Below are positions 9,952-43,671 of a stretch of 64,000 nucleotides of DNA, piece by piece (position 1 is the first letter of the stretch; the number at the start of each line of letters is the position of its first letter). The notes beneath the pieces were generated by a model. It was given only the letters and a program-made list of their open reading frames with translations, did not search any database and had not been told where the DNA came from. Made by a program: the position numbers and the translations under genes. The stretch is from positions 310,001 through 374,000 of the forward strand of contig NZ_AZUI01000001.1 in the NCBI RefSeq assembly GCF_000526995.1, in the 5' to 3' direction. The stretch comes from Lacrimispora indolis DSM 755. GTDB lineage: Bacteria > Bacillota > Clostridia > Lachnospirales > Lachnospiraceae.

Positions 9952-9983
9952 ATTACATCTTTCCATCATTGTTATTCATGTTC

Positions 9984-11152: not shown

Positions 11153-11178
11153 AAATAACAAAAGTCCATTTGCCCGAT

Positions 11179-12187: not shown

Positions 12188-12205
12188 TGAGAAAGGAGAA
12201 GTCCA

Positions 12206-18403: not shown

Positions 18404-18528
18404 GGGTTATTTCACCTTTCATAAGTTAATTTGTGTATAAAATCATCTGATCATGATATCATTCTTTTATCCCAAAGTACCGGAGCACGTACCAAACAGT
18501 CATTTTAACGTTGTTAAATATATGAGAA

Positions 18529-18558
18529 AAGTACCTGCCAAAAAATCGGCAGGTACTT
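18529..18558 (-). terminator. Terminator of the NRPS operon
   Basis: On the minus strand AAGTACCTGCC and GGCAGGTACTT form an 11-base stem around an AT-rich loop, followed by TTTTCTC. It lies about 70 bases after the stop codon of the release reductase, the last gene of the long leftward cluster. Confidence 0.8.
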
Positions 18559-18626
18559 AACCCGATAATAATATATTTCACTTTTCTCTTTGCCGGAAGC
18601 ACAAGCGGCACCTTCCAGACATATGG

Positions 18627-20099
18627 TCAGCAGAATCCTTCTTTTTTCGCCTGATCGCAAGCCCTCTCTACCATCGCTGCGTCCGGTGTATTCCAGGCCA
18701 TTCCAAGCTGTTCCAAAACATTGACCGTTTTTTCCATACAAATGTTGTATTGGTTCTTACCGATCCAGCTGATAATTTCACAGTGAAACGCCAGCTCATA
18801 AAAATGCTCCCGTTTTGACGGATGGGTTTTCTGATAATATGTAAAAACTTCATCCACTGACATCTCTTTCAAGGAAACAGCCGTATTCTTTCCCCTCATC
18901 AATTTTAAAATCTCTCCAATGGACAATGCATTTGGATTGATTACATGATGAATCTGATTGATTTCCTGATCGCTGAACATCAAACGGATTATGGCTTCAC
19001 TGATCATATCCACATTTGATATATCCATGGGGCGCTTAATCTCTTCAGGAACGATCCCCAGCCGATACAATGCCCGGTAAAAAATATATGCCGTACTTTG
19101 CTCCATATTCTGCTGATATTTTCCGGTCTGTGAATCAAATAAAATGCCGCTCATGCGGTAAACCGTGCTTTCGATCCCCCCTGTTCTGGCACGGATCAGC
19201 CGCTGTTCCGCCTGGTATTTGGAAGACAAATACTGATTATTTAAAGGATGCTCCACCAGCTCATCATATTCTGTGAAAAGCGTTTTTGCATGTTCTCCCT
19301 GTTCACCATAAGCGATTCCTATTGTAGACATATGATGAACCGCCTTTTTGCACCCCGTTGAAGCAAACTCCAGAACAGTTTCTACTGTTTTTACATTTAC
19401 GGAAACAAAATCATCATTTTTACCCATATGTTTTACTAATGCGGCAGAATTTACTACCGCATCAATTGACTGGGCCAGGGCCCCATACAGATCTTCGGAG
19501 ATGCCCATACATTTTTTTGTCAGATCTCCATATACAATCTGTACCCGGTCCTGATACTGTACATAGGAACCATCACCAAAATAATATTCATACTGTTTCT
19601 TCAGCCTTTCAGCAGCATCCCAGTGTCTGCGGACCAGTACAGTGATCACTGCGTCTGTCTGAACCAACAGTTGTTTTAACAGGTAGATCCCTAAAAACCC
19701 GGTTCCGCCCAGCAGCAGGACCTGATGATACTTATTGAAATCCGGCTTTATCTGATTCTGGCCTGCAAAGGCTGACCGGTACCGTTCCAGCTCAATGTCT
19801 GAAATTTCCTTCAAATCTTTAAAATGTAAAATGTCCTTGAGCTTCTGTTTCATCGCCTCCTGATTCTCCCGCAAGCATTCAGCAATATGTCTGACCGTCA
19901 TCGCGGCAAAAACATCGTCAATATCCAGTTCAAAATTCTCACTCAATTCAGAAATCACGTTTATTGCCCTCAGAGACGTCCCTCCCACATCAAAGAAATC
20001 ATCTTCTATTCCAAACTGTTTATGTTTTAAAACTCTCCCCCATATTTCTGCAACAATTTCCTGGTATGGTGTTTCCGGCAGCAGTTCCTTTCCTTTCAT
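18627..20099 (-). CDS. NRPS release protein: carrier domain plus thioester reductase
   Basis: The 490-residue protein has a peptidyl carrier domain (about residues 8-80; phosphopantetheine Ser42 in DVGGTSLRAI) followed by a thioester reductase of the extended SDR type (about 125-490). The Rossmann motif is LLLGGTGFLGIYLL and the Tyr-x3-Lys pair is in NQYLSSKYQAEQR. Such R domains release the finished chain with NAD(P)H as an aldehyde, sometimes reduced again to an alcohol. There is no condensation or adenylation domain, so the carrier must receive the chain or an amino acid in trans. The start overlaps closely with the stop of the large synthetase (TAGGATG). It is the last gene of the cluster. 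Confidence 0.88.
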   Translation of the reverse strand: MKGKELLPETPYQEIVAEIWGRVLKHKQFGIEDDFFDVGGTSLRAINVISELSENFELDIDDVFAAMTVRHIAECLRENQEAMKQKLKDILHFKDLKEISDIELERYRSAFAGQNQIKPDFNKYHQVLLLGGTGFLGIYLLKQLLVQTDAVITVLVRRHWDAAERLKKQYEYYFGDGSYVQYQDRVQIVYGDLTKKCMGISEDLYGALAQSIDAVVNSAALVKHMGKNDDFVSVNVKTVETVLEFASTGCKKAVHHMSTIGIAYGEQGEHAKTLFTEYDELVEHPLNNQYLSSKYQAEQRLIRARTGGIESTVYRMSGILFDSQTGKYQQNMEQSTAYIFYRALYRLGIVPEEIKRPMDISNVDMISEAIIRLMFSDQEINQIHHVINPNALSIGEILKLMRGKNTAVSLKEMSVDEVFTYYQKTHPSKREHFYELAFHCEIISWIGKNQYNICMEKTVNVLEQLGMAWNTPDAAMVERACDQAKKEGFC

Positions 20100-20100
20100 C

Positions 20101-23100
20101 CTATATCTCCCCTTCCATTCCGCCTGCGTATAGTGTTAATTTCTCCTGAATCATGCTGCTCAAATTTCTGACAGTATTGGCTGAAAAAATTTCCTGGAGA
20201 GATATTTCCGTATCATATTTCTTAATGAGCCGGTTCATGCTTTGAATTGCAAGGAGGGAGTCGCCGCCGATTTCAAAGAACTTATCAGTCACACTGACGG
20301 AATCCAGCCGCAGCATCTCTTTCCACATTTCTGAAATAAAAGCTTCCACTTCATTTTCAGGTGAAACAATTTCCCTGCGTTCTTCCCTGCCGGTTCCTGT
20401 AAATGGAAGCAGGCCTTTTCTGTCAATTTTTCCATTGGCAGTAACAGGAAGCTTTGGCAGTACTGCAACATGCCTGGGGACCATATATTCGGGAAGCTGT
20501 CCGGACAGAAATTCTGACAATACTTCCGTATCAATTACCTTCACATATTCTTTTGCCCTGGCCGCATAAAGGTTCCTGCCATAAACAGCCGTGATCTCCT
20601 CAAGGTCACAGAACAAATCAATCAGTTCCATTTTGCAGCTGTTCAAATGGCGGCTCCATTCCTGATGATTGAAAAAGGGGATCCCTGTTTCCTTTCGCTC
20701 GTCTGTAAAGCGGCTGAATCCGTACTCATACAGCCCTGCAATATTTAAGTCAAAACAATTCATCTTTGTGTTCTCCACAAAGAACAATACCCCTTCCGGC
20801 AGCAACAGCTGCCTGATGTTTTCAAGTGCGGTATTGATGTCAGCTGCTCTGTGCAGAGTGTTGTCTGCCAGTATGATGTGAAACTTCCGGCCTTTTGCCA
20901 GCTGCATATCAGCCGGTTGATTCATATCAAACAGTTCAAAATGGATTCCCTGATGCCGGGATTCTTTTTCTGCCAGGAAAAACTTTGACTCGTCACAGTA
21001 GGTGTAATCCCACTTTCCACGTTCTTCGTTTTTCAGAACCTCTTCCAGCATATTCCCGAATCTGGTTCCAATCTCCAGGACAGCTAATTTTTCTCCTTCA
21101 AAGAACTTATCAGTATATTGTTTCAGTAAACGATTCAACGCATTGTAATAATGCTGATTGATCCGCTGATAATAATTCAGTTTCTTTAACGCCGCTGTAA
21201 AATCCTGATCAAGGAAAAGAGAAACAACATCCTTATTCCCCTGGAGCACAGCCACATAAGTCTGCTGTGTTTCCAGATAATATTCTGCCAAATCTTTCAT
21301 TGATACCGGCAGTTCCTGAACCCTTTGAGAGACCAGTGACCACTGTCCGTAAGTCTGGCTGCAGCGGAAGATTTCCAGTCCGCTATTTTCCTGTGTAACT
21401 GCGCCTGCCTGTTTTAACTGTTCCAGCCAGTGTCTGAGCAGCGGCTGAAAACGCCGGTCTGTCTTCGTTTGAATCATCCGGTCTGCAAATGAAAATTCAT
21501 CAGCTTCACCGGTTAACATGCCGAGTTCTCGCAGAATATCAGCCGCTGCACAAATGCTCACAAGGTTCATCTCTTCCAGCATCCTTTGGACTGCATCCAC
21601 ATTCTCCTTCCGCACCATATCCGAAGCAATATCAGTGATATCACCATGATCAGCTATGATTAATTCACAATGGCCGTAAGGGTTTTCTTCCGTTTTTGCC
21701 GTTACAAATGCATATAGCTGCTGCTGCGGGCTTTGATCTGCAATGACTGCCACATCCTTTACATCCGGAAACAATCCGACCGCCTGCTCAATCTCACCCA
21801 GACCGATACGGAATCCTTTTATTTTAATCTGGTTATCTTCACGTCCCAAAAATTCGATGTTGCCGTCAGGCATATATCTGGCCAGATCTCCGGTTTTATA
21901 TATCCGTTCCCCGGTAAGAGGATGGGTGATAAATTGTCCTGCCGTGCGTTTTTCATCATTCCAGTATCCTGCGGCCACACCGGCTCCGCCGATATACAGA
22001 TCCCCGCAGACTCCCACCGGACAGGGCTGCATTCTGTCATTGTAAATGTACAGCACCTGATTGCTTAAGGGTTTTCCATAAGGGATGCTGCTCCATTCCG
22101 GAGATACCTGGTGAATAATATAATAGTTAGACCAGATGGCCGCTTCGGTGGCCCCTCCCAGACTAATCAGAAGGGTAGCAGGGAAAAGCTGTTTTATCTG
22201 CTCAGGTAAAGTCATTGGAATCCAATCACCGCTTAACATCACCAGGCGCAGGGAGGCATCAATCGCCCCAGAGCCGCAGAACTCCGCCAGCATGCTCATA
22301 AAAGCAGGAACTGTGTTCCAAATGCTGACCTTCTGCTGTTCCATGACTGCCGCCCAATGAGCCGGATTTTTAAGCTGTGCCTGCTCCGGAATTACCACAG
22401 CACCTCCGGCTGACAGCATGCCAAAGATATCGTAGACCGACAGATCAAAATTTAAGTTGGAAAGCGCAATGCTCCGGTCCTCCTCTGTAACATTAAAACG
22501 CCGATTGATATCAATGATTGTGTTCACTGCATTTTTATGGGTAATGGTAACACCTTTGGGTTCTCCGGTGGATCCGGATGTATAAATGACATAAGCCACA
22601 GCTTCCGGCAGAACAGGCTCCAGGACGCACTCTTTTGTTTCTGCATAGGGAATGGTATCCACATCAATCCATTGCCCGGCCCTGATTCCCTCTTTTTTAA
22701 TCCAGGACTGGGACAGCAGCATCTGGACTCCTGCCCGTTCTAACAGACTGTTAATCCGTTCGGCAGGATGATGGACATCCAGCGGCAGATAAGCTGCGCC
22801 TGTTTTCATAACAGCCAGTGCCGCGATTACCTGCTCCATTCCTTTTTCCATATAAATGCCGATGAGAGGTTTCCTGTTTTGTCTGAGGCAAATCTCGGCG
22901 GCAGTCCGTTTCACACAGTTTTCCAGTTCTCCATAAGTAATGGTTAAGTCTTTATAAATGACTGCAATATTTTCAGGCGTTTTTGCACATTGCCGTTCAA
23001 ATAGTGAAACCAGCGTATCATCAGGAATCACTGTCTTATTTACATTCTCCTGCTCAAACTCCTGAATCCGGGGAATGGTGACCAGTTCAATATCCGGCTT

Positions 23101-26100
23101 CTCCCAGTTTTCCAGATGCTCACATAAACTCTCGATCAGTTTTACATATGCATGGAACATTTCCCAAATCATCCGCTCCGGGAACAGTTCTTTTACATAA
23201 TCCCAAATCAGGACCAGGTCGCCCTGCTCCTCTGTCACCTGATGGTCCAGCCATACCTGGGGTGTTTCCGAGCTGCTGTAAATACGGTTTTCAAACCAGT
23301 TTTTGTGATCCTTCCCATTTGACTGCAGTCCCAGAGAACTGGTAAATACAACCGGCATCATGACTCCCTGCTGACTTTGATAATATTTTCCCAGTTCACG
23401 CTGAACAGAAACACCGCAGAACAGCGGATGCTCTAAATCAGCCAGCAGCTGTTTCTGTATTTTTTTACAGCGTTCCGTAAAGGAATCAGTCATTCCTGTC
23501 TTCATATCAATTTCCAGCAAAGTCAGAGAAGTAAAATCCCCCACCACTTCATTGATTTCAGGATGAACCGGCATCCGGTTAAACCGTGTTAAATTGATGG
23601 TAAATCTCTGATGTCTGCTCCAGGCCGCCAGAATTTCTGCATATGCACCGATCAGAAATACTGATGGAGTGATACCTCCTGTTCCAGTCAGATGAGTTTT
23701 GATTTTTTCCCACTTTTCCGAAGAAAGCCGGTGCTCCAGATGGGCAAAGGTATGGACCGGCGCTTCCAGGGTGGGCAATTCCGGTGCCGGCGGGAGGGTG
23801 GAAAGACGGTTTAACCAGTATTCCTTATCCTGCTTAAATGCCGGCGTCTGTTTCATCCGTTCTGCTTCTAATACATAGTCCCGGAACGTGACAGCCGGCC
23901 GGCGCGCAGAATACTCCTCCTGCTCATACATTCGGCTGATCTCCCGGAAGAAATAGAAGATGCTCCATCCGTCGAAAATAATGTTGTCAAAGCAGAGATG
24001 CAGACGGACCCTTTTCTCCGGCAGCACGGAAATCCTGATATCAAACAGAGGCCATTCCTCCGGCTGGAATACACGGTGGGACAATTCCCGGCGTATCTGT
24101 TCTATATGGCTTTCGATCACCTCGCTGTCCATTTCTTCCAGATGATATTCTTTCAGTTCATAAGGCGGGATCTCCTTTAAAACCACCTGCCGTTCTCCGT
24201 CACTTAAAATCACCGCCCGCATCATATCGTGGGCGTTTAAAAATCCATGGAAGGCCTGTTTCAATCTGGCGATCTTAAAATCATTATTTTCAATTTCAAA
24301 ATAGTAATGGGTGGATACCTGCCCTAAGTCATAAACTCCCTTGCGGCCGATCCAGTATGCTTTTTGGATTTCGGTCAGCGGAAATGGCTCAAATCTGCCT
24401 GCAGGATCTGTTTGCAGGACCGAATCCTGATTTGTTGATATGGCTTCCCGGCCCGCATCCTGCAGCTGCATTGTATCCAACAATTCTGCCTGAAGGGAAA
24501 GCACCGGCTGTTCAAATACATGTTCCAGCATAAACGGAACACCAAACCGTTTCCGTATTTCAGCCGTCAGCTGTGTAGCAATCAGCGAGTCTCCTCCTAA
24601 TTCAAAATAGGAATCTTCCAAATAAACTTCCGGTTGTTTTAAAATTTCTTTCCATATCTGAGCAAGCCTTTTCTCTTTTTCTGTTTCCGGCAGGCGTTTT
24701 TCTTCTTCCGTCTGATGCGTTTCTGTAATTTCCAGGGCCAATAAACGGCTTCTGTCCACTTTTCCATTTTGATTTAACGGCATCTGTTCAAGATAAATAA
24801 AATGTTTTGGGATCATATACTCCGGAATCAGGTGTTTCAGCCTTTTTTTCCATTCATTGGAATCCCTGCCGCAGTCTTCCCCTGTGAGGAATGCCAGCAG
24901 TTCTTTTTGTCCCGATGGCAGTTCTTTTGCAAAAACAACTGCTTCCTCTACTCCTGAATGCTTTAAAACAGCAGCTTCTATTTCTCCCAATTCAATCCGA
25001 TGACCACGGATTTTTACCTGTAAGTCTTTCCTGCCGAGAAATTCAATCCGCCCATCAGGACGGTAACGGCCCATATCCCCGGTCCGGTACCAACGCTCAT
25101 GGTTATGAAGGATAAACCTTTCCTCTGTTAACTGAGGTTCCCCAACATATGACAATGCCAGGCCATTGCCTCCGATCCACAATTCCCCTGGCACCCAGTC
25201 CGGACAGGAACGAAGCTTTTCATCCATAATACAGTACTTTTGATTGCTTAAAGGATACCCATAGGGGATAGACTTCCATTCCGGTTCCAGGGGCAGGGTC
25301 ACTTCATAATAGTTAGACCAGATGGAAGCTTCTGTGGCACCGCCCATGGACAGCATATTTGCATTGGGACACTGATTTTTCATCCGCTCCGGCAAAGTCA
25401 GTCCTATCCAGTCACCGGAAAGAAAAATCCATCGCAGGGAACTGAGAAGAATCCCCCTGCTCTTAGCCGCAATCAACAGCATATCAAACAAAACCGGAAC
25501 GCTGTTCCAGATTGTAATTTGGTATTGATGGATGAGATCGGCCCAGTACTCGGCATTTCTCCGCTCCTGATCAGGAATGCAGATAAGTGATGCGCCGGTA
25601 TTTAACGTTCCAAACAGATCATAAACCGATAAATCGAATTCCAGTGAAGAAACAGCTAACACCGAATCCGTTTCATGAATTCCACAGATCCGGTTAACCG
25701 CTTCTATTGTATTAACCGCACCTCTGTGACTGATTTCCACACCTTTTGGCTCACCGGTGGAACCTGAAGTAAAAATAATATAGGCACTGCTGTCCGGTGA
25801 AACGGGATTTGCCTTCTGCTGGGGCAATATCTTTTCACTGTCCTCTATGCACAGCATGGTCACCTGCTCATCAGGTTCAATTTCAGCCATAACTGCACGT
25901 GTTGTCAATACATACTCTGCATTTGACTTCCGGTACATAACCGCTCTCCGGAAAGCAGGCTGGGTGGGGGCAATGGGAGTATAGCAGGCTCCTGCCGCCA
26001 GGATTCCCATTACACCGATGACCTGGGAAATCCCCCGTTCCATGGTGATTGCAACAACAGACCCTGTTTTCACTCCGGCCTTTTGTAAATAAGCAGCGGT

Positions 26101-27861: not shown

Positions 27862-27914
27862 TTTTTCATCTCCTCTTCCGCCCGCTGACCGCAGTCAAAA
27901 GGACGCCTGCTCCT

Positions 27915-29489: not shown

Positions 29490-29511
29490 AACAGGAGTCC
29501 CCTCTTTCTTT

Positions 29512-33575: not shown

Positions 33576-33592
33576 AAGTTCTCCTTTGCACG

Positions 33593-34642: not shown

Positions 34643-34666
34643 AATTTCCCCCTTGCCGTTGCATTT

Positions 34667-34684
34667 AGTTAGTCATGACTAACT
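34667..34684. promoter_or_regulatory. Palindromic operator candidate before the biosynthetic genes
   Basis: AGTTAGTCATGACTAACT is a perfect 18-base palindrome in the 65-base gap between the ECF ATPase gene and the reductase gene. Its GTTAG-N6-CTAAC core also occurs at 41733-41748. It may be a binding site for an iron- or product-responsive regulator; nothing resembling a strong promoter is evident beside it. Confidence 0.55.
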
Positions 34685-34707
34685 CATGGGTATGATTATC
34701 AACCGGC

Positions 34708-36084
34708 TTAGCCGATTGTAACCACTGATGCTCTTAAATGATTGATAAATTCCAAATCATGAGTAATGACAATGACAATTTTATTCTTTTCACACAACAT
34801 ATTGATTAAATCGCCGACCCGTTTCATATTATCCAGGTCCAAACCGCTGGTTGGTTCATCGAAAATAATAATCTCTTTTTCACTTAAACATCCCGTAGCA
34901 ACTGCCAGACGCTGTTTCTGCCCGCCTGATAAAGCCATGGGATGCTTTTCTAAAAAACCGCTCAGTTCCATGGTGTCAAGAATCTCTATGGCCTCTTTTT
35001 CAGAAGCACCATTTCCAAGCATAACCTCTGACAGCACACTGTCGGAAAAAAGCTGGTGATTGACATCCTGCATAATCAAAAAACTGCTTTTGCAAAGCTG
35101 TTTCCGGTTCATCCGCCTGCCATCCAGATACAGCTCCCCCTGCTTACACTTCCTAAGTCCGCACAAACACTGGACCAGAGTCGTTTTTCCTGCTCCGTTT
35201 TTGCCGCAAATGGCTACCACGGTTCCTTTCAATGCAGTAAAGGAAAGGTGTTCCCATAGAATACGGCGTCCTCTTTTAACCGCCAGATTTTTCACCATCA
35301 GGCCCTCACTGCTCTGGATTTGAACCCGTTCCTCATGAATTTCCACCGGATCAACCGAACGGATCGACCACTCCCGGCATTGTTCAGGAGTCAGAGCCTT
35401 AAATTCCTCCTGACTCCACTCTTTTGCAACGGCCCCCTCTTCCAGCCAAAGCGCCCGGTCCAGCAGATCCGCCAGATACCAGACCCTGTGTTCCGCAATC
35501 ACAATGGTTTTCCCCTGCTTTTTTAATTGTTTTAACAATCCCTGCAGCCGCAGTATTTCTTCCTGATCCAAATTAGCGGAAGGTTCGTCAAGCACATAAA
35601 TCTCCGGTTGTTCCATATATGCGGAAGCAATAGCAACCTTCTGCTTTTCTCCTCCTGACAATTCAAAGACACTTTTCTCCATCAGTGTGTGCAGATGATA
35701 TTCCGCCACAACCTGCTGCAAGCGCCCCAAAATGTCATCTTTGGGAACCCCCTTATTTTCCAGTCCGTATACAACCTCGCTGGTGGTATCCAAATTAAAA
35801 AATTGCGTTCTTGGATTTTGAAAAACAGAGCCTACCGTTTCAGACAGTTTCCAGGTCGGCTGGTCGGCTGTATTTTCATTGTTAATCCACACCGAGCCGC
35901 TTAAAGTCCCTGGAATCTGTTCCGGAATCAGTCCATTGATCAGCTTTATTAGCGTTGTTTTTCCGCATCCGCTTTTCCCGCAGAGCATAACAAACTCTCC
36001 CCGTTTCACCTCCATACTGCAATGGAGCAAGCTGGCCTTTTCTTCTCCTTCATATGTAAATGTCACATCACAAATACGAATCAT
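34708..36084 (-). CDS. ECF transporter double ATPase (EcfA1-EcfA2 fusion type)
   Basis: The 458-residue protein contains two ABC ATPase domains. The first has Walker A GKSGCGKTT and signature LSGGEKQKVAIA with DEPSANLD; the second has GKNGAGKTT, LSGGQKQRLAVA and DEPTSGLD. It energises the ECF transporter formed with the next two genes upstream. I start it at the ATG at 36084 (MIRICDVTFTYEG), since the longer frame overlaps the EcfT gene with an implausible Trp/Cys-rich leader. Being embedded in the NRPS operon, the transporter probably handles the metallophore, its metal complex or a precursor. Confidence 0.9.
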   Translation of the reverse strand: MIRICDVTFTYEGEEKASLLHCSMEVKRGEFVMLCGKSGCGKTTLIKLINGLIPEQIPGTLSGSVWINNENTADQPTWKLSETVGSVFQNPRTQFFNLDTTSEVVYGLENKGVPKDDILGRLQQVVAEYHLHTLMEKSVFELSGGEKQKVAIASAYMEQPEIYVLDEPSANLDQEEILRLQGLLKQLKKQGKTIVIAEHRVWYLADLLDRALWLEEGAVAKEWSQEEFKALTPEQCREWSIRSVDPVEIHEERVQIQSSEGLMVKNLAVKRGRRILWEHLSFTALKGTVVAICGKNGAGKTTLVQCLCGLRKCKQGELYLDGRRMNRKQLCKSSFLIMQDVNHQLFSDSVLSEVMLGNGASEKEAIEILDTMELSGFLEKHPMALSGGQKQRLAVATGCLSEKEIIIFDEPTSGLDLDNMKRVGDLINMLCEKNKIVIVITHDLEFINHLRASVVTIG

Positions 36085-36103
36085 TTTGCCTCCCAATGAT
36101 TTT

Positions 36104-36775
36104 TTACCCCAGCCAAATGGCTGCCCCTGCCAGCAGCAGGAAATACACCAGCACCAGTACATCCAATAACCGGATCCGGATCTCGACAATGGAAGTCTTG
36201 GGAGCTGGATTTTCTATTCCCCGGACAATGGCCGATTGTGCCAGTTCTTCACCGGTCTTTACCGCACTCATTAAAAGCGGTACATACATACTCTCTATTT
36301 TCTGTTCCATTCCCTTTATATTACGCAGACGCATGGCATTCCAAATTGCCGTCAGTTCATCCTTCAGCGTGGGAAAATATCTGGCGGACACCGCTACCGC
36401 CACTGAAACAGATAATGGAATATGCATTCTTCGGAAAGCCTCCAGCAAAACCCGGACCGGTGTTGTTGCGCAAAACAAAGCTACGGCCGCACCACACGGA
36501 AAAATCATTTTAAAATAAACAGCTACCGATATCATGCTGGCCAATGTGACATTTACATTAGGAATTACGAAAACCTGAATGACACATAAGACCAGATAAC
36601 TGGCCAAAATCTGAAACATGGTTTTTCTGACTCCGAAACAATACATTAAAAATAAAATGCTGGACATAAAAATCCATTCTATGTATAACTTTGTATGGGA
36701 AAATACAATAACCACTGATAAAATGATCAGTATCATGCCGATCCGGGGATCCAATCCCCTGCTTTTTCCATACAT
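36104..36775 (-). CDS. ECF transporter transmembrane subunit EcfT (CbiQ family)
   Basis: The 223-residue membrane protein has about five helices and the EcfT coupling motifs, including SAIVRGIE in the ATPase-contacting cytoplasmic region. It is the scaffold between the S component and the ATPase. The start overlaps the S-component stop as TAATG, and the ATPase gene follows after 20 bases, so the three are clearly one unit. Confidence 0.88.
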   Translation of the reverse strand: MYGKSRGLDPRIGMILIILSVVIVFSHTKLYIEWIFMSSILFLMYCFGVRKTMFQILASYLVLCVIQVFVIPNVNVTLASMISVAVYFKMIFPCGAAVALFCATTPVRVLLEAFRRMHIPLSVSVAVAVSARYFPTLKDELTAIWNAMRLRNIKGMEQKIESMYVPLLMSAVKTGEELAQSAIVRGIENPAPKTSIVEIRIRLLDVLVLVYFLLLAGAAIWLG

Positions 36776-37368
36776 TACTGAGCAACTCCTGCCTTTACAA
36801 AGTGTTTTCTCATCAGTTTAAAACCTAAAAACCCACCTGCTAAAGAACCAATCAGAATGCTGACGATAATAAAGATCATTGTCGGTGCGGAGACCAGCCG
36901 GCTTAACGCATCCAGATATTCGGCATTCATAAAATTTTCCGAATATTTCAAAAAGGACTCTTTGTGGAACCACAACAGATAAAAATCTCCAATAAATCCA
37001 AAAGAAAAGATAACATAAGAGATCATGATCCAGAACTTATTTTCAAACTGCCCTTTTCTGAGCGCCAGTTCAGCTAAAATACCGGCAATGATTTCTGAAA
37101 CGATGATCGAAATTGCTGCTGAAATAAATATAATTCCAGTAACCAGACTGATCACAAAAACAGGTCCTGTTCTCCTGGTTTTTGCTACAATCAGCATATA
37201 AACCGGACCAATGAAAATCGCATCAAACATATGGGATGCAAACCATGCAACAGGCAGAATCCCTCCTAAGATCATAAAAAGAAAGCGGATCGCAATGCAA
37301 ATCACCCCCAAAACAGATGCTATTATTATATCTTTCATACTCAATTTACTGCTGCTTTCTCTGCTCAT
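36775..37368 (-). CDS. ECF transporter S component, MptD-like
   Basis: This 197-residue protein has about five or six membrane helices and resembles MptD-family ECF substrate-binding subunits (MKDIIIASVLGVICIAIRF at the N-terminus). S components bind the transported small molecule; they are best known for vitamins and metal ions. A dedicated S component inside a siderophore-like cluster suggests that it binds a product, its metal complex or a precursor. It has AGGAGG eleven bases ahead of the ATG. Confidence 0.83.
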   Translation of the reverse strand: MSRESSSKLSMKDIIIASVLGVICIAIRFLFMILGGILPVAWFASHMFDAIFIGPVYMLIVAKTRRTGPVFVISLVTGIIFISAAISIIVSEIIAGILAELALRKGQFENKFWIMISYVIFSFGFIGDFYLLWFHKESFLKYSENFMNAEYLDALSRLVSAPTMIFIIVSILIGSLAGGFLGFKLMRKHFVKAGVAQ

Positions 37369-37394
37369 TTTATCATTATCCTCCTTTGGCCATT

Positions 37395-38168
37395 TTACTT
37401 CATCACATCTTCTACTAAACCGGCAAGATAGCTTTCGTCCTCCAACACAAAAAAGTGGTTTCCTTTGAACTCGCGAATCTCAAAATGATTTGTAGTTACT
37501 TCTTTCCAACGCTTCATCATTTTTTTGTCTGCTCCTGCATCTTTTATGGCCGAATGGGCAATCACCGGAACATCAGTCCTTTCGCCGTTGTAGCAAAAGC
37601 TCTCATTCAATTGATAATCTCTTCTGATTTCAGGAAGGTAATAGCTCATAAACTGCTCATTCTGCAGCACAGCCTCCGGGGTGAGCTGATAACGCCTCAA
37701 TTCCTCAATCAGGGCCTGATCATCCATATAAGTCTTGAACTCGGAAAAGTTCTCATCCTGGGGAGCCTGACGGCCTGCCACGATCAGCTTTTCCGGCCTC
37801 ACCCCATATAACCGTTCCAGGATGCAGCAGACTTCAAATGCCAGAGCCGCCCCCATGCTGTGGCCAAACAGGCAAAAAGGTTCACTTCCTGTTTTAGCCA
37901 GTATCTGCTGTGCCAAAGTCTGTGCCAGCATTTTGCTGTTCCCAATAAACGGTTCCCCGCGCCTTGTTCCTTTTCCCATCAGCTCCACGCAGATGATTCT
38001 GACCGGCATTAATTTTGTGGTCCATTTCCGGTAAGATGCTGCGGTTCCGCCTGCATGGTGGAAACAAAATACATTCATTACCCTTTTCTCATTTCCCGCT
38101 CCCGGGTTAAGGATCAGCTTACTCTCAAAGGGAAATGTTTTCTCATACCCTGCTGCAGTTCCGTTCAT
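37395..38168 (-). CDS. Type II thioesterase with serine nucleophile
   Basis: The 257-residue protein is an alpha/beta hydrolase of the GrsT/YbtT type: FCFHHAGGTAASYRKW near residue 35, the nucleophile Ser104 in FGHSMGAALAFE, and the late His in FKGNHFFVL. It should remove misloaded or stalled groups from carrier domains. It is the canonical counterpart of the Cys-containing thioesterase at 29512-30261. Its ATG forms an ATGA overlap with the original, now frameshifted, end of the preceding ABC transporter gene. Confidence 0.9.
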   Translation of the reverse strand: MNGTAAGYEKTFPFESKLILNPGAGNEKRVMNVFCFHHAGGTAASYRKWTTKLMPVRIICVELMGKGTRRGEPFIGNSKMLAQTLAQQILAKTGSEPFCLFGHSMGAALAFEVCCILERLYGVRPEKLIVAGRQAPQDENFSEFKTYMDDQALIEELRRYQLTPEAVLQNEQFMSYYLPEIRRDYQLNESFCYNGERTDVPVIAHSAIKDAGADKKMMKRWKEVTTNHFEIREFKGNHFFVLEDESYLAGLVEDVMK

Positions 38169-38292
38169 TGGCTCACCTTCCAGCTGACTGATTCTTTTCT
38201 GACGTTAATAAAATCTGCGTAAATTCCCGGCTGTTTGATCAGCTCCTCATGTCTGCCTTTCTGTACGATATTCCCTTGATCCAAAACAATGA
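38165..38292 (-). pseudogene. Displaced 3' end of the second half ABC transporter
   Basis: In a second frame the minus strand encodes the missing end of the ATPase: IIVLDQGNIVQKGRHEELIK and PGIYADFINVRKES, matching the equivalent end of the paralogous transporter (IVVVNHGRIEAAGRQDELLL). It finishes in a TGA that overlaps the thioesterase ATG as ATGA. Loss of one copy of a tandem AGATC pentamer near 38290 would explain the break. It is either a true mutation or a sequencing error. Confidence 0.75.
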
Positions 38293-39902
38293 TCTGCATT
38301 TCTCACTGTTTTTAACCGGTGAGCGATCATGATAATGGTTTTATTGTGAGTTAATGCCTCAATGGCCTTCTGTAAATCCGCTTCATTCTCAGGGTCCACA
38401 TTGGCTGTCGCCTCATCGAGAATTACAATCGGGGCATTTTTAAGCATTGCCCTGGCAATGGAAATCCGCTGTTTTTCTCCTCCGGAAAGATTGCCCCCAC
38501 CCTCTCCCAGCACCGTATGATAACCTTCCGGCAGCTGGCGGATAAACTCATCGCAGCAGGCAGCCTTAGCAGCCTTTACCACCTCTTCATGTGTGGCTTC
38601 CGGTCTGCCGAATTTAATGTTATTTTCGATGGTATCCTGAAACAGATACACGCTCTGGAACACCATACTGATATGCTCTAAAAGACTGTCCAGCGTATAG
38701 TTTCTGATATCGGTTCCTCCTAAAAGGATCCGGCCGCCGGTCACATCCCAAAACCTTGCGATCAAACTGCAAAGTGTGGATTTTCCGCCGCCGCTGGGTC
38801 CGATCACTGCCACAGTTGACTTTTCGGGAATAACCAGGTTGATTTTTTCCAGCACCTTTCTCTCACTTTTTTCATAACAAAAGTCAACATCCTGAAATTT
38901 GATTTCCATATTCTCCGGAACGATCTCCATTCCGTTCTGGTCCATAACGGGGGTCTCATCAATGGCATTTGCCTTATCCATCGAATCATTCAGCATCTGA
39001 AGCATGGAAGCCATATTACCCGCTGATTCCAGTTCACTGTAAACCATAAAGGAAGCAATGATCAGCAGCAGGCACTTTACAAGCTCCAGTCCTCCATCCA
39101 GATACAGACGGACAGTCATCAACAGGATTCCTGTACCGGCAGCCCTTACAATCAGCTGCTTTAACCCATCCCAGGGAACACTTTTTAAAGTCAGGTTAAT
39201 GTTTTTTTCACAGCTTTTATGTATGGCATCATCAATTTCCTGATTTCCGGCAGCTTCCAGATTAAACGATTTCACCACGCTCATCCCCTGCACATATTCC
39301 AAAATCGCACCCACCAGTTCTTCCTGTGCAGTCTGCCGTTTCCCGGAGACAATGCGGGAGCGGCGCTGAGCCACTTCCGTAATGATCAGATAAATAATCA
39401 TTCCCCCAAAAACCACCAGGCCGATTCTGAAATCAATGATCAGTACAGCGATGGAAAAAGCCAGAGACTGTAAGATGCCGCTCAGTATGATAGCCAGACT
39501 TCGGGCCGCCGTGTTTTCCACATCTCCAAGAGAAGTCGTTACAACTGCAGTTAGATTGCCAAGATTATTTTCATTAAAAAATCCCATAGGAATGTATTTT
39601 AACCGATCCCCGATATGCACTCTTTTATCAATGACCATACCATATCCGGTTTCAGTCTGTTTGATTACCGATCCATAAGTCGCCCAGGCTTTTCCGGCAA
39701 TCGACACCAGCATAATCCCAAAAAGATATGCGGCGGTTTTTAGCTCACGGTTATCAGCCAGAACATTCTGAATCAAAATCAGCAATGCCCAAAACTGAAG
39801 CGCCGCAAAAACAGATCCCATAAAACTAATCCAGATTGACTGAACCAGCATCTTTTTCCGCTCTCCGGCAAAGGTAAAGATCTTCCGAAAAATATGTATC
39901 AT
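38247..39902 (-). CDS. Half ABC transporter (YbtQ/IrtB-like), 3' end frameshifted
   Basis: The protein has an ABC exporter-fold membrane domain (about residues 10-310) and an ATPase domain with Walker A GPSGGGKST, signature LSGGEKQRISIARA, Walker B IVILDEATANVD and the H-loop IAHRL. The frame then shifts: after RNAD it reads into an unrelated 15-residue tail, while the expected end continues in another frame to 38165. The start is the ATG at 39902 with AGGAGG ahead. With its neighbour it forms a heterodimer like YbtP/YbtQ or IrtA/IrtB, which import iron-siderophore despite their exporter fold. Direction of transport here is not known. Confidence 0.88.
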   Translation of the reverse strand: MIHIFRKIFTFAGERKKMLVQSIWISFMGSVFAALQFWALLILIQNVLADNRELKTAAYLFGIMLVSIAGKAWATYGSVIKQTETGYGMVIDKRVHIGDRLKYIPMGFFNENNLGNLTAVVTTSLGDVENTAARSLAIILSGILQSLAFSIAVLIIDFRIGLVVFGGMIIYLIITEVAQRRSRIVSGKRQTAQEELVGAILEYVQGMSVVKSFNLEAAGNQEIDDAIHKSCEKNINLTLKSVPWDGLKQLIVRAAGTGILLMTVRLYLDGGLELVKCLLLIIASFMVYSELESAGNMASMLQMLNDSMDKANAIDETPVMDQNGMEIVPENMEIKFQDVDFCYEKSERKVLEKINLVIPEKSTVAVIGPSGGGKSTLCSLIARFWDVTGGRILLGGTDIRNYTLDSLLEHISMVFQSVYLFQDTIENNIKFGRPEATHEEVVKAAKAACCDEFIRQLPEGYHTVLGEGGGNLSGGEKQRISIARAMLKNAPIVILDEATANVDPENEADLQKAIEALTHNKTIIMIAHRLKTVRNADHCFGSREYRTERQT

Positions 39903-39915
39903 TTCATTCCCTCCT

Positions 39916-41664
39916 CTACGCCTGATCCTTGACATCCATATGTGCATTCCACATTTCCTGATACAGAGGGCACTGAAGAAGCAGCTCATCCTGCCTGCCC
40001 GCCGCTTCAATCCTGCCATGGTTTACCACAACAATCTGATCCGCATCAACAATTGTGGATAAACGATGGGCAATTATGATCAATGTCTTTCCTTTGGTCA
40101 GGGAAGAAAGTGCTCTTTGAATTTCAGCTTCATTTTCCGGATCCATTGCTGCCGTAGCTTCATCTAAAATTACAATCGGGGCATTTTTAAGCATTGCTCT
40201 GGCAATGGTGATTCTTTGCCGCTCGCCGCCGGACAAACTGCTTCCGGCCGTTCCAACCAGGGTATCATAGCCATGTTCCAGTTTCCGGATAAATTCATCA
40301 CAGCCGGCTCGTTTTGCCACTTCTTCCACCTCTTCATCCGATGCATTCAAATTGCCCATCCGGATATTCTCACGGATGCTGCGGTTAAATAAATACGTAT
40401 CCTGTGAAACGTAAGCAATCTGACAATTAAGCTGCGACACAGGAATCTGTTTCATCTCAACACCGCCGATATGAATTTCACCTTCTGTTACATCCCAAAA
40501 GCCGGCAATCAATTTGGCCAGAGTGGATTTTCCGGAACCAGAGGGGCCTACCAGTGCCGTCATTGTCCCTGCAGGAATCCTTAAGCTGACATGATCAAGA
40601 GCCTGTTCATTGCCCGTTCCATATGTAAAAGATACATTGTTTAACTGAATATCACTTCCGTCCAATATTGCATCAGTTTCTGAACGGTTCAGTTCCCCGG
40701 CATTTAAAATATCGTTAATTTCTGCAACATTGGCACCAAGCACCGCAATATCATCTGTAAATGTGAAGGCAGCCATAATGGGCCCGATAATGCCCAGAGC
40801 TAAGATGATGATCGTCAGCAGTTCATGGAAAGCAATACTTCCTGTGGCCCAGAAATACAATCCGGCCGGCAGCACCGTCAGTAAATTGGCCGGAAGTATG
40901 GCCTGATATGCACACATTGTTTTCTGATTATCTCTCATCCAGTCAATATAGTAATTTCCGTTATAGGATACGGCATCAGCATACTTTTTATAGGATCCGG
41001 CTGACTGGTTAAAGGTCTTGATCACTTCTATTCCGTTGATGTATTCGATAATGGCATTTACCATTTTCCGGCCTGCAAGGACCGCCCCTTCATACCGCTT
41101 GGCATATCCTCTCATCCCATACATCATAACAGCCATTCCCACAATCAGTGTGATGATTGAGATAAATGCCATCCTCCAATCTAATATAAAAAGATAAATG
41201 AAAATAAAAATGGGAATCAATAGGTTCGCGGTCATCTCCGGAATCAGATGGGCCAATGTGGGTTCCATGCCTTCCACCCGCTCTACTATGACCGTTTTAT
41301 ACTGCCCGGAAGGGGTGTCCAATATGGTTCCCATGGGAAGCCGTGTCAGTTTTTTAATTAAACGGATCCGCAGATCCTTCAGCGATCTGTATGTGGCTTT
41401 ATGGGATATGGACGTGGAAGTACAGGAAAATATGATTTTTACCAGATATCCTGCCAGCGCTGTCCCGCACCATGTAACATAAAAATGAAAGTCATCATTC
41501 CCTTCCAACAGCCCGCCTACCATTTGAGCCGCACAAAAATATGGGACAATTCCTCCTGCGACTCCGATCACTGCAAAAAAAATTGACAGAATGAACTGTG
41601 ATTGATATTTTTTTCCCCATTCCATCAAAATACTGGCTGAAGATTGTTTTTCGTAATCCTCCAT
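39916..41664 (-). CDS. Half ABC transporter (YbtP/IrtA-like)
   Basis: This 582-residue protein has six membrane helices (about residues 20-310) and an ATPase domain with Walker A GPSGSGKST, signature LSGGERQRITIARA, Walker B IVILDEATAAMD and H-loop IAHRLST. It is intact. It pairs with the frameshifted half-transporter gene 14 bases downstream. It is the first gene of the leftward operon, after a strong promoter and a GTTAG-N6-CTAAC repeat. In related metallophore clusters such pairs import the loaded siderophore or export the free one; the sequence does not decide. Confidence 0.92.
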   Translation of the reverse strand: MEDYEKQSSASILMEWGKKYQSQFILSIFFAVIGVAGGIVPYFCAAQMVGGLLEGNDDFHFYVTWCGTALAGYLVKIIFSCTSTSISHKATYRSLKDLRIRLIKKLTRLPMGTILDTPSGQYKTVIVERVEGMEPTLAHLIPEMTANLLIPIFIFIYLFILDWRMAFISIITLIVGMAVMMYGMRGYAKRYEGAVLAGRKMVNAIIEYINGIEVIKTFNQSAGSYKKYADAVSYNGNYYIDWMRDNQKTMCAYQAILPANLLTVLPAGLYFWATGSIAFHELLTIIILALGIIGPIMAAFTFTDDIAVLGANVAEINDILNAGELNRSETDAILDGSDIQLNNVSFTYGTGNEQALDHVSLRIPAGTMTALVGPSGSGKSTLAKLIAGFWDVTEGEIHIGGVEMKQIPVSQLNCQIAYVSQDTYLFNRSIRENIRMGNLNASDEEVEEVAKRAGCDEFIRKLEHGYDTLVGTAGSSLSGGERQRITIARAMLKNAPIVILDEATAAMDPENEAEIQRALSSLTKGKTLIIIAHRLSTIVDADQIVVVNHGRIEAAGRQDELLLQCPLYQEMWNAHMDVKDQA

Positions 41665-41732
41665 AAAAAAGACTCCTTCCTATCTCTTTCCCCTATTAGG
41701 CATGCAATGAGATATTTATCATAAAACATGCA

Positions 41733-41748
41733 GTTAGATACAACTAAC
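41733..41748. promoter_or_regulatory. GTTAG-N6-CTAAC operator candidate in the NRPS operon leader
   Basis: GTTAG (41733-41737) and CTAAC (41744-41748) are separated by six bases, the same geometry as the palindrome at 34668-34683. It lies in the leader between the operon promoter and its first gene, about 65 bases downstream of the -10. Confidence 0.55.
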
Positions 41749-41813
41749 CTTAGGGTGTTAAAAAGCGGAGCAGTCAGATACTCCGAACTTTAAACTCTTT
41801 AGATAACACTGAT

Positions 41814-41842
41814 ATTTTAATTCCAATTATGGCTTTTGTCAA
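41814..41842 (-). promoter_or_regulatory. Main promoter of the NRPS/transport operon
   Basis: On the minus strand a perfect TTGACA -35 (41837-41842) and a TAAAAT -10 (41814-41819) are separated by 17 bases. It precedes the two half-transporter genes and presumably the whole cluster down to 18627. A weak CGGAG/CTCCG hairpin followed by CTTTTT lies in the leader (about 41763-41794) and could act as an attenuator. Confidence 0.75.
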
Positions 41843-41912
41843 GGTAAATTATGGCAGGTATGGAAATTACATGTAAAAGGATGTCTTTCTATCTTCTATA
41901 TGATAGCAAAAA

Positions 41913-41963
41913 GGAACGTAATATTCTATTCTCTGGAATGCAGATCATAAAATATTACGTTCC
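41913..41963 (-). terminator. Terminator of the TetR gene
   Basis: On the minus strand GGAACGTAATATT pairs perfectly with AATATTACGTTCC and is followed by TTTTTGC. It separates the TetR gene from the NRPS operon, which therefore needs its own promoter. Confidence 0.82.
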
Positions 41964-41992
41964 TCACCGGGAATCAGGATGCATTGCTCTGA

Positions 41993-42616
41993 TTATAATT
42001 CTATATCCAGAAGCTTAAACCACCCGGCTTCATAAAAAACATACAGCCGCTCAATATATTCTCTGGCTTTTTCCCGCGGCATATCGTGAATTACGGTTTC
42101 GAAAATACCAGAAAACAAAGCATTGGAGACAATATGAACCAGCTCTTTATCGATCCTTAACTGCTTTCCTCTTTCCGATTGAAGCCGCTCAATAAAAGTC
42201 AGGCTGGCTTCTGCTTCAATTTGAACCAGCTGATCCATATAATTCTCATAAACCGTTCCTGCGGAACAACAGCAAATCAATTTAAACTCTTCAAAGTGGT
42301 CATAAACATATTCAATTAACCAATTCTGGTCATGTTTCGCAAGCTGGTCCAGGTTTTCGATCTGATGATCCACATCCAGATCCCAAAACTCCTGCTGCTG
42401 ATCTCTGTACCGATTCTCAAGCTGCTCAGCAGCCTCTGATACGAGTGCGTGAAACAGTGCCTGTTTATCAGTAAAATAAATATAAACAGCACCGGTTGTG
42501 GCCCCTGCCGATCTTGCGATGTTCCGCATGGATGCTTTTTGGTACCCCTGGGTTAAGAATTCCTGCTTCCCTGCATCCAAAATGGCTTGTTTTAATTTTT
42601 CATTCGTTGGTCTCAT
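41993..42616 (-). CDS. TetR-family transcriptional regulator
   Basis: The 207-residue protein has an N-terminal TetR helix-turn-helix (residues 8-55, MRNIARSAGATTGAVYIYFTDKQALFHALV) and a helical ligand-binding C-terminus. Its gene lies between the NRPS/transport operon and the divergent phosphopantetheinyl transferase gene, so it probably controls one or both. GGAGG lies six bases ahead of the ATG. The ligand is unknown; the pathway product or a precursor is a reasonable guess. Confidence 0.88.
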   Translation of the reverse strand: MRPTNEKLKQAILDAGKQEFLTQGYQKASMRNIARSAGATTGAVYIYFTDKQALFHALVSEAAEQLENRYRDQQQEFWDLDVDHQIENLDQLAKHDQNWLIEYVYDHFEEFKLICCCSAGTVYENYMDQLVQIEAEASLTFIERLQSERGKQLRIDKELVHIVSNALFSGIFETVIHDMPREKAREYIERLYVFYEAGWFKLLDIEL

Positions 42617-42704
42617 TGGCTGCCTCCAAATTTCATTTCCTTTCAGGGCCCCATTTTGCTTACAGAATACCCTTTAATTTTTATTCTTAAATTTAAAAAA
42701 TAAT

Positions 42705-42732
42705 TTGACAAATTGTCCTGAAATGATACGAT
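42705..42732 (+). promoter_or_regulatory. Promoter of the phosphopantetheinyl transferase gene
   Basis: A TTGACA -35 (42705-42710) and TACGAT -10 (42727-42732) have 16 bases between them. An inverted repeat GACAA-A-TTGTC (42707-42717) overlaps the -35 and could be a site for the adjacent TetR protein. Confidence 0.55.
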
Positions 42733-42768
42733 ATAACATAAAAACATGATTTTCCTTGGGAGGATTCC

Positions 42769-43416
42769 ATGATTGAGAATTATCATTTAGAAGTTAACAA
42801 ATCTGTATTTTCCCATGAGGAAAAACATTTACTGCAATTTGTCCCGAACGAAAGAAAAGAAAAAATACTAAGGTACCGTTTTTTTTCCGACCGCCTGCTG
42901 TCTCTGTATGCAGCGCTGCTGACGCGGATGGTCGTGAGCAGACGAATGGGAGTTCCCGCAGATAAACTGGAAATAGCTTATGAAGCAATGGGAAAGCCTT
43001 ATTTGGCAAACACAGAAAATTTGTACTTTAATTTATCTCATACCCGGAGTTGTATTTTACTTTGTATATCCGATCATCAGCCGGTGGGGGCAGATATTGA
43101 AAAACTTAATCCCCCTCCATTTGAAATTATGGAAACAGTCTTCCATCCGGATGAGATATCTTACATTGAGTCCGCTTCAATAAATACAAACGTGCATAAG
43201 TTTTATGAGATATGGACAAAAAAAGAAGCTTATCTAAAAAAGACCGGCACCGGTTTTATCCAAGATCCCAGCCTTATTAATACACGGATGCTTCCGGTGG
43301 ATTACTGCAGCTACCAGGCAGGTGATTACTTTTGCACGATATGCAGTGATACGATCGGTAAAATCATAAGGCATAACATAACGGAAACAGATATTTTGAA
43401 CTTTTTTCAGTCTTAA
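42769..43416 (+). CDS. Sfp-type 4'-phosphopantetheinyl transferase
   Basis: This 215-residue enzyme transfers phosphopantetheine from coenzyme A to the carrier-domain serines of the synthetases. It has the Sfp signatures NLSHTRSCIL, VGADIEKL (metal-binding Asp/Glu) and FYEIWTKKEAYLKKTGTGF. GGGAGG lies seven bases before the ATG. It is divergent from the NRPS operon and its TetR regulator, as is common for cluster-linked Sfp enzymes. All carrier domains in this window (one ArCP, four PCPs) need such an enzyme. The gap 43417-43560 holds nothing I can identify. Confidence 0.92.
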   Translation: MIENYHLEVNKSVFSHEEKHLLQFVPNERKEKILRYRFFSDRLLSLYAALLTRMVVSRRMGVPADKLEIAYEAMGKPYLANTENLYFNLSHTRSCILLCISDHQPVGADIEKLNPPPFEIMETVFHPDEISYIESASINTNVHKFYEIWTKKEAYLKKTGTGFIQDPSLINTRMLPVDYCSYQAGDYFCTICSDTIGKIIRHNITETDILNFFQS

Positions 43417-43562
43417 TACAAAGCAACATGTTCCGTTTCGAATTTAGTGTACTGAATTTTTCCAAAATAATCAAGTACCTATGTGTGAGGAATCATTGAT
43501 ACTTAAGGAATCCAACAGAAGGCAGGGGAAAAAGGGGCCAAAGAATTTTCCAATTACAAAAA

Positions 43563-43588
43563 AAGAGAGGGGATCAACCGCCTCTCTT
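43563..43588 (-). terminator. Terminator of the DUF5684 gene
   Basis: On the minus strand AAGAGAGG and CCTCTCTT form a stem around a nine-base loop, followed by TTTTTTTG. Confidence 0.75.
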
Positions 43589-43671
43589 GTCAGGTTATTT
43601 CATGGTCCAGCGGATATTCGCAATCCGCTTTGCTGCCTCATATGATAAAAAAAGGACACCGCCTGGAAACC

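What the first reader, a model, noticed from the sequence alone, without database searches (positions are those of the whole stretch)
18627..43416. Aryl-capped tris-thiazoline metallophore-like cluster with reductive release
Seen: an aryl-AMP ligase, an aryl carrier domain, three Cy domains each paired with an A domain with DLYN-type (cysteine-like) pocket residues, an MT-like insertion, two type II thioesterases, a carrier-reductase end protein, transporters and an Sfp enzyme. Known: this toolkit builds yersiniabactin, pyochelin and equibactin. Inferred: the product is an aryl chain with up to three thiazoline (or thiazolidine) rings ending as an aldehyde or alcohol, in an anaerobic clostridium. 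No salicylate or DHB synthase gene is in the window.
Basis: partly seen in the sequence, partly recalled or inferred. Interest (0 to 1): 0.85.

Follow-up and report, generated by a model that had tools for sequence, protein, structure and literature searches.

The report
Equibactin-like metallophore cluster, reductase-ended
A Lacrimispora-like clostridial bacterium carries an acquired-looking block of genes that probably makes a small metal-binding molecule related to equibactin, with an unusual reductase protein that may leave an aldehyde or alcohol end instead of an acid.

Summary
The gene content is confirmed. The block at about 18413-43668 is an aryl-capped thiazoline NRPS cluster: aryl-AMP ligase, ArCP, three Cy-A pairs with cysteine-type pockets, a free PCP-reductase, two free thioesterases, transporters and an Sfp enzyme. 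The kind is known: equibactin (Streptococcus equi) and clusters of C. kluyveri and C. difficile RT023 are in print, and all nine clostridial stretches I fetched hold related NRPS genes. Window and Cellulosilyticum ruminicola differ from those: (i) the end module TubC-Cy-A(MT)-PCP-TE is cut to TubC-Cy-A-PCP, beside a PCP-reductase and a free thioesterase with a Cys nucleophile motif; (ii) the methyltransferase/epimerase-like insert sits in module 2, not module 1; (iii) neither genome has a YbtU/PchG-type thiazoline reductase match, but both have a saccharopine-dehydrogenase-like (EqbM-type) protein, whose modelled fold matches C=N reductases. Uptake is probably by an ECF transporter. The window's genome shows no salicylate synthase or isochorismate-type enzyme, so the aryl acid is probably taken up; salicylate is the best guess. 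The block is an accessory island (1 of 25 genus genomes). Structure, end group and metal are inferred.

The parts
18627..20099 (-). PCP-thioester reductase protein (PCP about 19872-20057; reductase about 18633-19724)
   Evidence: Pfam PP-binding and NAD_binding_4; full-length match to 6vtj and match to the AusA R protein 4f6l; 173.9 bits against a cut-off of 213.35 for TIGR01746, so a divergent member
20101..27861 (-). NRPS1: ArCP 27637-27849, Cy1 26272-27573, A1 24739-26190, PCP1 24484-24669, Cy2 23107-24381, A2 core 21742-23016, PCP2 20134-20352
   Evidence: Pfam, PchE and BmdB alignments, pockets
20542..21669 (-). methyltransferase/epimerase-like domain inserted in A2 of NRPS1
   Evidence: Pfam Methyltransf_12; CurJ-type methyltransferases are the best solved relatives; degenerate motif I GTRFG and HR motif, also in C. 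ruminicola
27915..29528 (-). aryl-AMP ligase, pocket code NFGGQGTT
   Evidence: TIGR02275 533 bits, below its cut-off of 723.55; alignments to solved ligases; codes
29512..30261 (-). free thioesterase with Cys nucleophile motif GHCTG
   Evidence: Pfam Thioesterase; motif also in C. ruminicola, GHCSG in the G634 relative
30258..33575 (-). NRPS2: TubC_N 33414-33554, Cy3 32142-33356, A3 30570-32015, PCP3 30285-30491; no MT, no TE matched
   Evidence: Pfam; 4 of 5 relatives scanned carry MT, PCP and TE
33593..34642 (-). saccharopine-dehydrogenase-like reductase (EqbM type)
34708..36189 (-). ECF transporter double ATPase (true start probably at residue 36, read by eye)
   Evidence: Pfam ABC_tran twice; TIGR01166 cbiO over its cut-off, TIGR04520/04521 ECF ATPases below theirs
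36104..36775 (-). ECF T component (CbiQ family)
   Evidence: Pfam PF02361
36775..37368 (-). ECF S component, MptD/Trep_Strep family
   Evidence: TIGR02185 110.2 bits, over its cut-off of 76.45
37395..38168 (-). type II thioesterase, GHSMG
   Evidence: Pfam, motif
38247..40019 (-). ABC half-transporter with fused permease and ATPase, as EqbK/EqbL (true start probably at residue 40, read by eye)
   Evidence: Pfam
39916..41664 (-). ABC half-transporter, partner
   Evidence: Pfam
41993..42616 (-). TetR-family regulator
   Evidence: Pfam; 62% relative beside the C. ruminicola cluster
42769..43416 (+). Sfp-type phosphopantetheinyl transferase
   Evidence: Pfam ACPS and AASDHPPT_N
18413..43668 (.). 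approximate limits of the segment absent from three relatives, where the two flanking genes lie about 1.3 kb apart

Best explanation
It is an equibactin-family NRPS cluster on an accessory island. Shown: gene content, domain order, conserved motifs, and no salicylate synthase match in the genome. Inferred, step by step: (1) the ligase adenylates a 2-hydroxybenzoate-type acid, most likely salicylate taken from outside, and loads the ArCP of NRPS1; (2) Cy1/A1 and Cy2/A2 add two cysteines as thiazolines, and the insert in A2 epimerises or methylates the second unit; (3) the chain passes through the TubC docking domain to NRPS2, which adds a third cysteine ring; (4) the saccharopine-dehydrogenase-like enzyme reduces a thiazoline C=N to a thiazolidine in place of a PchG/YbtU-type reductase; (5) the chain reaches the PCP-R protein and NADPH releases it as an aldehyde or alcohol; (6) the fused ABC pair helps export and the ECF transporter brings the metal complex back.
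For: Domains and motifs. Gene order R-NRPS1-AL-TE-NRPS2-SDH-ECF-TE-ABC-ABC-TetR is the same in C. ruminicola at 46-71% identity (R and NRPS1 lie in two frames each there). L. brassicae holds close relatives of R (86%) and SDH (83%), both listed with the same longest contig length. In the class 11 of 391 genomes, own included, have an SDH relative; of the other 10 I fetched 8 (9 stretches), and 9 of 9 stretches hold NRPS relatives. Terminal proteins of 4 of 5 examined end in MT-PCP-TE, here PCP, with PCP-R apart. In S. equi salicylate, EqbM and EqbHIJ were needed for product or iron import (PMC3672683, passages). SDH-like fold: best matches work on C=N bonds (their chemistry is recalled). TIGR01761 is matched in 5 of 10 related genomes, not in G000 or G148.
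Against: No product, no metal data, no metal-type box better than shuffles. Cy3's DxxxxD is altered. The PCP-R protein has no C or Cy domain, so transfer onto its PCP is unexplained. A free Cys-type thioesterase is also present, and clusters whose last module lacks a TE domain (window, C. ruminicola, G634) all have one, while G634 shows no R relative: the thioesterase, not R, may be the counterpart of the lost TE. T322 and T330 of the ligase match no ligase in the table read. The SDH-like gene occurs together with a TIGR01761 reductase in five genomes, and in the mupirochelin cluster (PMC10080011, passages), so it need not be the ring reductase. Equibactin's authors could not identify it by LC-MS and saw no chelation in a CAS test.
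Confidence: 0.5

Rival explanations
1. Release is by the free Cys-type thioesterase 29512-30261 (hydrolysis or ring closure), as the counterpart of the terminal TE of related clusters; the PCP-R protein does another reduction or acts on another chain.
For: GHCTG here and in C. ruminicola. Of 8 terminal proteins of related clusters, 5 show GxCxG in the last 340 residues (G782, G693, G763, G110, G469 contig 4) and 3 show no such motif (G469 contig 1, G524, G664); G634, whose last module has no TE match, has a free relative of this thioesterase at 35% with GHCSG. I raised this rival from 0.1 and lowered the main reading from 0.6 because.
Against: Sequence similarity of the free thioesterase to those terminal domains is weak (best E 2.4e-4 over 45 residues). 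PCP-R is kept in C. ruminicola and L. brassicae.
Confidence: 0.2
2. Bis-thiazoline product: NRPS1 hands the chain straight to the PCP-R protein, and NRPS2 with its altered Cy3 is a condensation-only or optional module.
For: The R gene lies directly after NRPS1; Cy3 has Glu for the first Asp of DxxxxD in three clusters; the PCP-R protein has no acceptor C domain for either.
Against: NRPS2 has a TubC docking domain, the TPQ..D.Q residues and a cysteine pocket, and is kept in C. ruminicola at 58%; DxxxxD aspartates are described as structural (PMC9547227, passages).
Confidence: 0.2
3. The product is not a metallophore but a small reactive aryl-thiazoline aldehyde or alcohol (signal or inhibitor), as thought for other R-ended NRPS clusters of gut anaerobes (that comparison is recalled). 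This can hold together with the main chemistry.
For: PCP-R protein; TetR regulator instead of the DtxR-like EqbA; no metal-type box better than shuffles.
Against: ECF genes, fused ABC pair, aryl ligase and SDH-like gene are shared with the equibactin cluster, whose product drives iron uptake; ECF-type ATPase relatives at 36% or more occur in 6 of 9 related stretches.
Confidence: 0.15

Closest known systems
Equibactin locus eqbA-N of Streptococcus equi (PMC3672683, outline, section 7 and passages)
   Same: Aryl-AMP ligase, ArCP, three Cy domains, cysteine use, free TE, PPTase, EqbM (saccharopine-dehydrogenase family), importer EqbHIJ, fused ABC pair EqbKL, no salicylate synthase found, carried on an acquired element
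   Different: Equibactin has one A domain, a YbtU-like reductase (EqbF), a C-terminal TE with Ser to Ala, and a DtxR-like regulator; here three A domains, no such reductase match, PCP-R protein, TetR regulator, insert in module 2
Clostridial eqb-like clusters (C. kluyveri CKL_1504-1523 and C. difficile 023_CTn1 from papers; nine stretches of unnamed Clostridia here)
   Same: In the nine stretches: NRPS relatives 9 of 9, clear ligase 7 of 9, ABC pair 6 of 9, ECF-type ATPase 6 of 9, free TE 6 of 9, Sfp relative 5 of 9
   Different: 4 of 5 terminal proteins scanned end in MT-PCP-TE; no R relative at 1e-10 in the 9 stretches
Cellulosilyticum ruminicola JCM 14822 contig NZ_BBCG01000023.1
   Same: Same genes and order, same PCP-R, same module-2 insert, same GHCTG thioesterase
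   Different: R and NRPS1 each in two frames in that assembly; ligase code NFGGQGTV; no Sfp relative found on the contig
Pyochelin PchDEF and yersiniabactin HMWP1/2
   Same: Cy catalytic residues, cysteine pockets, MT/epimerase-like insert in an A domain
   Different: Salicylate synthases YbtS, PchA/PchB are named in PMC3672683; TE release (that paper for yersiniabactin, recalled for pyochelin)
Solved PCP-R protein 6vtj and AusA R domain 4f6l/4f6c
   Same: PCP plus reductase layout
   Different: AusA makes pyrazinones (recalled); here PCP-R is a separate protein without C or A domain

Membership tests
Equibactin/yersiniabactin-type aryl-thiazoline NRPS | aryl-AMP ligase plus ArCP | tested here: met
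   the two DHB-ligase models hit below their cut-offs
Equibactin/yersiniabactin-type aryl-thiazoline NRPS | Cy domains with catalytic T/D/Q and DxxxxD | tested here: met
   TPQ...D.Q in 3 of 3; DxxxxD in 2 of 3, ExxxxD in Cy3
Equibactin/yersiniabactin-type aryl-thiazoline NRPS | cysteine-type A pocket | tested here: met
   3 of 3 (table; Phe299 of A1 is not in that table)
Equibactin/yersiniabactin-type aryl-thiazoline NRPS | YbtU/PchG-type thiazolinyl imide reductase (TIGR01761) | tested here: not met
   no match in G000 or G148, nor in G110, G763, G693; matched over cut-off in 5 of 10, so not universal in the group
Equibactin/yersiniabactin-type aryl-thiazoline NRPS | C-terminal TE on the last module | tested here: not met
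   no TE match on NRPS1, NRPS2 or R
Equibactin/yersiniabactin-type aryl-thiazoline NRPS | salicylate as starter | tested here: inconclusive
   code NFGGQGTT; Gly239 also in two clusters that hold a salicylate synthase; no synthase over cut-off in G000
Equibactin/yersiniabactin-type aryl-thiazoline NRPS | metal chelation and uptake | not testable with these tools
   needs product
Terminal thioester reductase (R) release | PCP-R didomain with NAD(P) and Y..K motifs | tested here: met
   below the TIGR01746 cut-off
Terminal thioester reductase (R) release | aldehyde or alcohol product | not testable with these tools
   needs enzyme assay
ECF transporter | S, T and ATPase components together | tested here: met
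   TIGR02185 over cut-off, CbiQ, double ATPase
Saccharopine-dehydrogenase-like fold | overall fold | tested here: met
PchE-type inserted epimerase | MT-like fold with His/Glu pair and no working SAM site | tested here: inconclusive
   His and Glu kept, motif I degenerate, but PchE was not among the 25 solved sequences matched up to E 10

The most novel reading that the evidence does not exclude
A subclass of anaerobe metallophores in which a truncated last module, a free PCP-reductase and a free Cys-type thioesterase replace the terminal TE, giving an aryl tris-thiazoline aldehyde or alcohol. It would be built on an aryl acid scavenged from the surroundings, with ring reduction by a saccharopine-dehydrogenase-like enzyme and uptake by an ECF transporter.
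Probability: 0.35. Interest if true: 0.7.

Novelty: new variant of a known kind. Interest (0 to 1): 0.45.

Why it matters
Thiazoline metallophores of anaerobes are poorly known: equibactin's structure was not solved by its authors in the paper read. This locus gives a genetic handle on how the last step varies (terminal TE with Ser, Ala or Cys, free Cys-type TE, PCP-R) and on which enzyme reduces a ring where no classical reductase is matched. It also suggests that some anaerobes may depend on aryl acids made by others, and that ECF transporters carry metallophores. Each of these can be tested directly.

Tried and rejected
Aryl acid clearly not salicylate: I first read the ligase code NFGGQGTT as excluding salicylate. 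One search showed Gly239 in two clusters with a salicylate synthase (NFGAQGVI, NFGGQGII), so I dropped that. T322 and T330 remain unexplained.

R-positive genomes: of the 25 of 392 order genomes with an R hit I fetched wider neighbourhoods of three besides the window (G148, G009, G177). G148's contig has the length and the cluster of the named C. ruminicola contig (52824 bases). In the 3134-aa G009 protein the Cy pattern was not found, but that pattern also missed some Cy domains elsewhere. The two G177 stretches hold R relatives at 27-28% and were not pursued. The rest were not examined.

Metal boxes: window, best DtxR-like 13 of 19, reached by 20 of 300 shuffles, best Fur-like 11 of 19, by 296 of 300; C. 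ruminicola interval, 13 of 19 by 92 of 300 and 13 of 19 by 157 of 300; Fur consensus search of the window, 0 matches. Not used as evidence.

Island ends: longest shared match 10 bases; no integrase among the cluster genes scanned with Pfam.

PchE as match for the inserted domain: not listed up to E 10. Structure jobs for R and for the insert were never accepted.

Paper searches (all ten used): the listings showed no thiazoline metallophore cluster with PCP-R release. Only listings and some passages were seen, and the library lacks most subscription journals, so this is weak. My recollection that PchK is a saccharopine-dehydrogenase-like thiazoline reductase found no support in the listings.

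Script faults: the letter given for pocket position 299 is residue 300; corrected. In one search the pocket pattern found nothing and the PCP pattern missed some PCPs, which I read by eye. In one search the motif pattern for free thioesterases missed the G634 GHCSG protein, found.

Rows dropped: of 17 insert rows, 5 have the HR motif, 10 have GAGxG with other motifs, and 2 (G634 974-aa and G469 1085-aa proteins) fit neither; alignment A3 holds the window and the 5.

Full report
What is there. The window lies at 310001-374000 of a 6.38-Mb single-contig genome. The nearest named relatives of its proteins in the searches are from Lacrimispora brassicae (83% for SDH, 86% for R). Between about 18413 and 43668 lie fourteen genes: thirteen on the minus strand and a divergent Sfp-type gene. 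NRPS1 is ArCP-Cy-A-PCP-Cy-A(insert)-PCP, NRPS2 is TubC_N-Cy-A-PCP, and the last gene is PCP-R. The three A pockets are of cysteine type. All three Cy domains keep the residues of PchE T474, D480 and Q482 (PMC8807600, passages). Cy3 has Glu for the first Asp of DxxxxD, as in C. ruminicola and one G469 protein; PMC9547227 (passages) describes those aspartates as structural.

Known relatives. The equibactin cluster of S. equi (PMC3672683; outline, section 7 and passages) shares nearly the whole parts list, including EqbM of the saccharopine dehydrogenase family. There EqbM was needed for activity in E. coli, salicylate had to be supplied in defined medium, and EqbHIJ were needed for iron import; the term ECF does not occur in that text. 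The C. difficile RT023 paper lists an ECF cobalt-type transporter, a thiazolinyl imide reductase and a saccharopine dehydrogenase in its island (passages). A Ruminococcus genome note reports an antiSMASH equibactin-type cluster (passage). PMC12971057 (passages) notes metallophore clusters without chelator genes in the genome and cites equibactin. So the kind is known, also in anaerobes.

Conservation. C. ruminicola JCM 14822 carries the same genes in the same order at 46-71% identity; its R and NRPS1 are each in two frames in that assembly. In the class, 11 of 391 genomes, own included, have an SDH relative. I fetched nine stretches from eight of the other ten. All nine hold NRPS relatives, a clear ligase is in 7 of 9, an ECF-type ATPase relative at 36% or more in 6 of 9, and none has an R relative at 1e-10. 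Of five terminal proteins scanned, 4 end in MT-PCP-TE and all five match TubC_N, one below cut-off; NRPS2 corresponds to their front part.

The end of the line. Window and C. ruminicola lack a TE match on the last module and have a PCP-R protein. They also have a free thioesterase with GHCTG. In one search, 5 of 8 terminal proteins of related clusters show GxCxG near their end and 3 show no such motif; G634, without a TE match on its last module, has a free relative of this thioesterase with GHCSG and no R relative. So the free Cys-type thioesterase may be the counterpart of the lost TE. Because of this I lowered the main reading from 0.6 to 0.5, raised the thioesterase rival from 0.1 to 0.2, and lowered the novel case from 0.4 to 0.35.

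The insert. The MT-like domain of NRPS1 has motif I GTRFG where the terminal-module domains of related clusters have GAGxG, keeps a His and a Glu, and shares its HR motif with C. ruminicola and with inserts in four other clusters. In those four the domain follows the first A domain; here and in C. ruminicola it lies in the second. PchE has an epimerase of this fold with H1204 and E1234. I give even odds for epimerase and methyltransferase, as PchE was not among the profile's matches.

The aryl acid. One chorismate-binding enzyme was found in the genome; by eye it is TrpE, beside a TrpG-like ORF. It scored 177.6 bits with the salicylate synthase model, cut-off 325.15; 3 of 10 related genomes have a match over cut-off, not G000 or C. 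ruminicola. Other isochorismate enzymes were not searched in C. ruminicola. The ligase code is NFGGQGTT. One search found 4650 proteins among 8000 scored candidates and listed 120; of these 120, P0034-P0038 share NFGGQG[TV], and P0133 and P0135 also have the Gly-Gly pair; the commonest code, counting the window too, is the salicylate-like NFCAQGVL, 54 of 121. Gly239 also occurs beside a salicylate synthase in two clusters, so salicylate stays the best guess.

The island. 1 of 25 genus genomes has the SDH gene. A flanking WYL-type gene has close relatives (80-85%) in five genus genomes; in three of them (G394, G408, G409) the other flanking gene, DUF5684, lies about 1.3 kb away, and in the other two (G395, G406) no DUF5684 match was found. 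In the three, a 259-codon frame sits between them, of which only part matches the window at about 18200-18412. No long repeats were found at the ends.

Verdict. A real cluster of a known kind, in a variant whose distinctive points are the split end (PCP-R and free Cys-type thioesterase), the shifted insert and the missing classical ring reductase.

Noticed in passing
window 1753-13546: Two sortase-domain genes with an isopeptide (FctA, Spy0128-like) protein and repeat-bearing surface-type proteins (pilus-type locus, by Pfam), followed by a LytTR response regulator and a GHKL kinase.
   Followed up: no
terminal proteins of related clusters: L057-L058, L061-L062, L065-L066, L059-L060, L055 stretches: Five of eight terminal proteins show a GxCxG (Cys) motif in the TE region and three show no nucleophile motif, next to Ser to Ala in EqbG (paper): the release step of this family seems unsettled.
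   Followed up: partly
L067 (CP032834.1, Klebsiella pneumoniae plasmid pINF237_01-VP): Plasmid-borne NRPS siderophore-type cluster with an annotated salicylate synthase, TonB receptors, paired ABC genes and a 27% relative of the SDH-like protein.
   Followed up: no
P0021: Metagenomic protein with TubC_N and the start of a Cy domain (43% to NRPS2 over 129 residues) joined to the reductase: the same gene pair in other samples, or a misassembly.
   Followed up: partly
L031 (C. ruminicola contig, about 50.6-51.7 kb of the contig): A transposase-like reading frame, read by eye, lies between the ABC gene and the TetR gene.
   Followed up: no
L058 and L057 (G782): The aryl ligase frame runs on into a salicylate synthase in one 996-aa open frame.
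   Followed up: no
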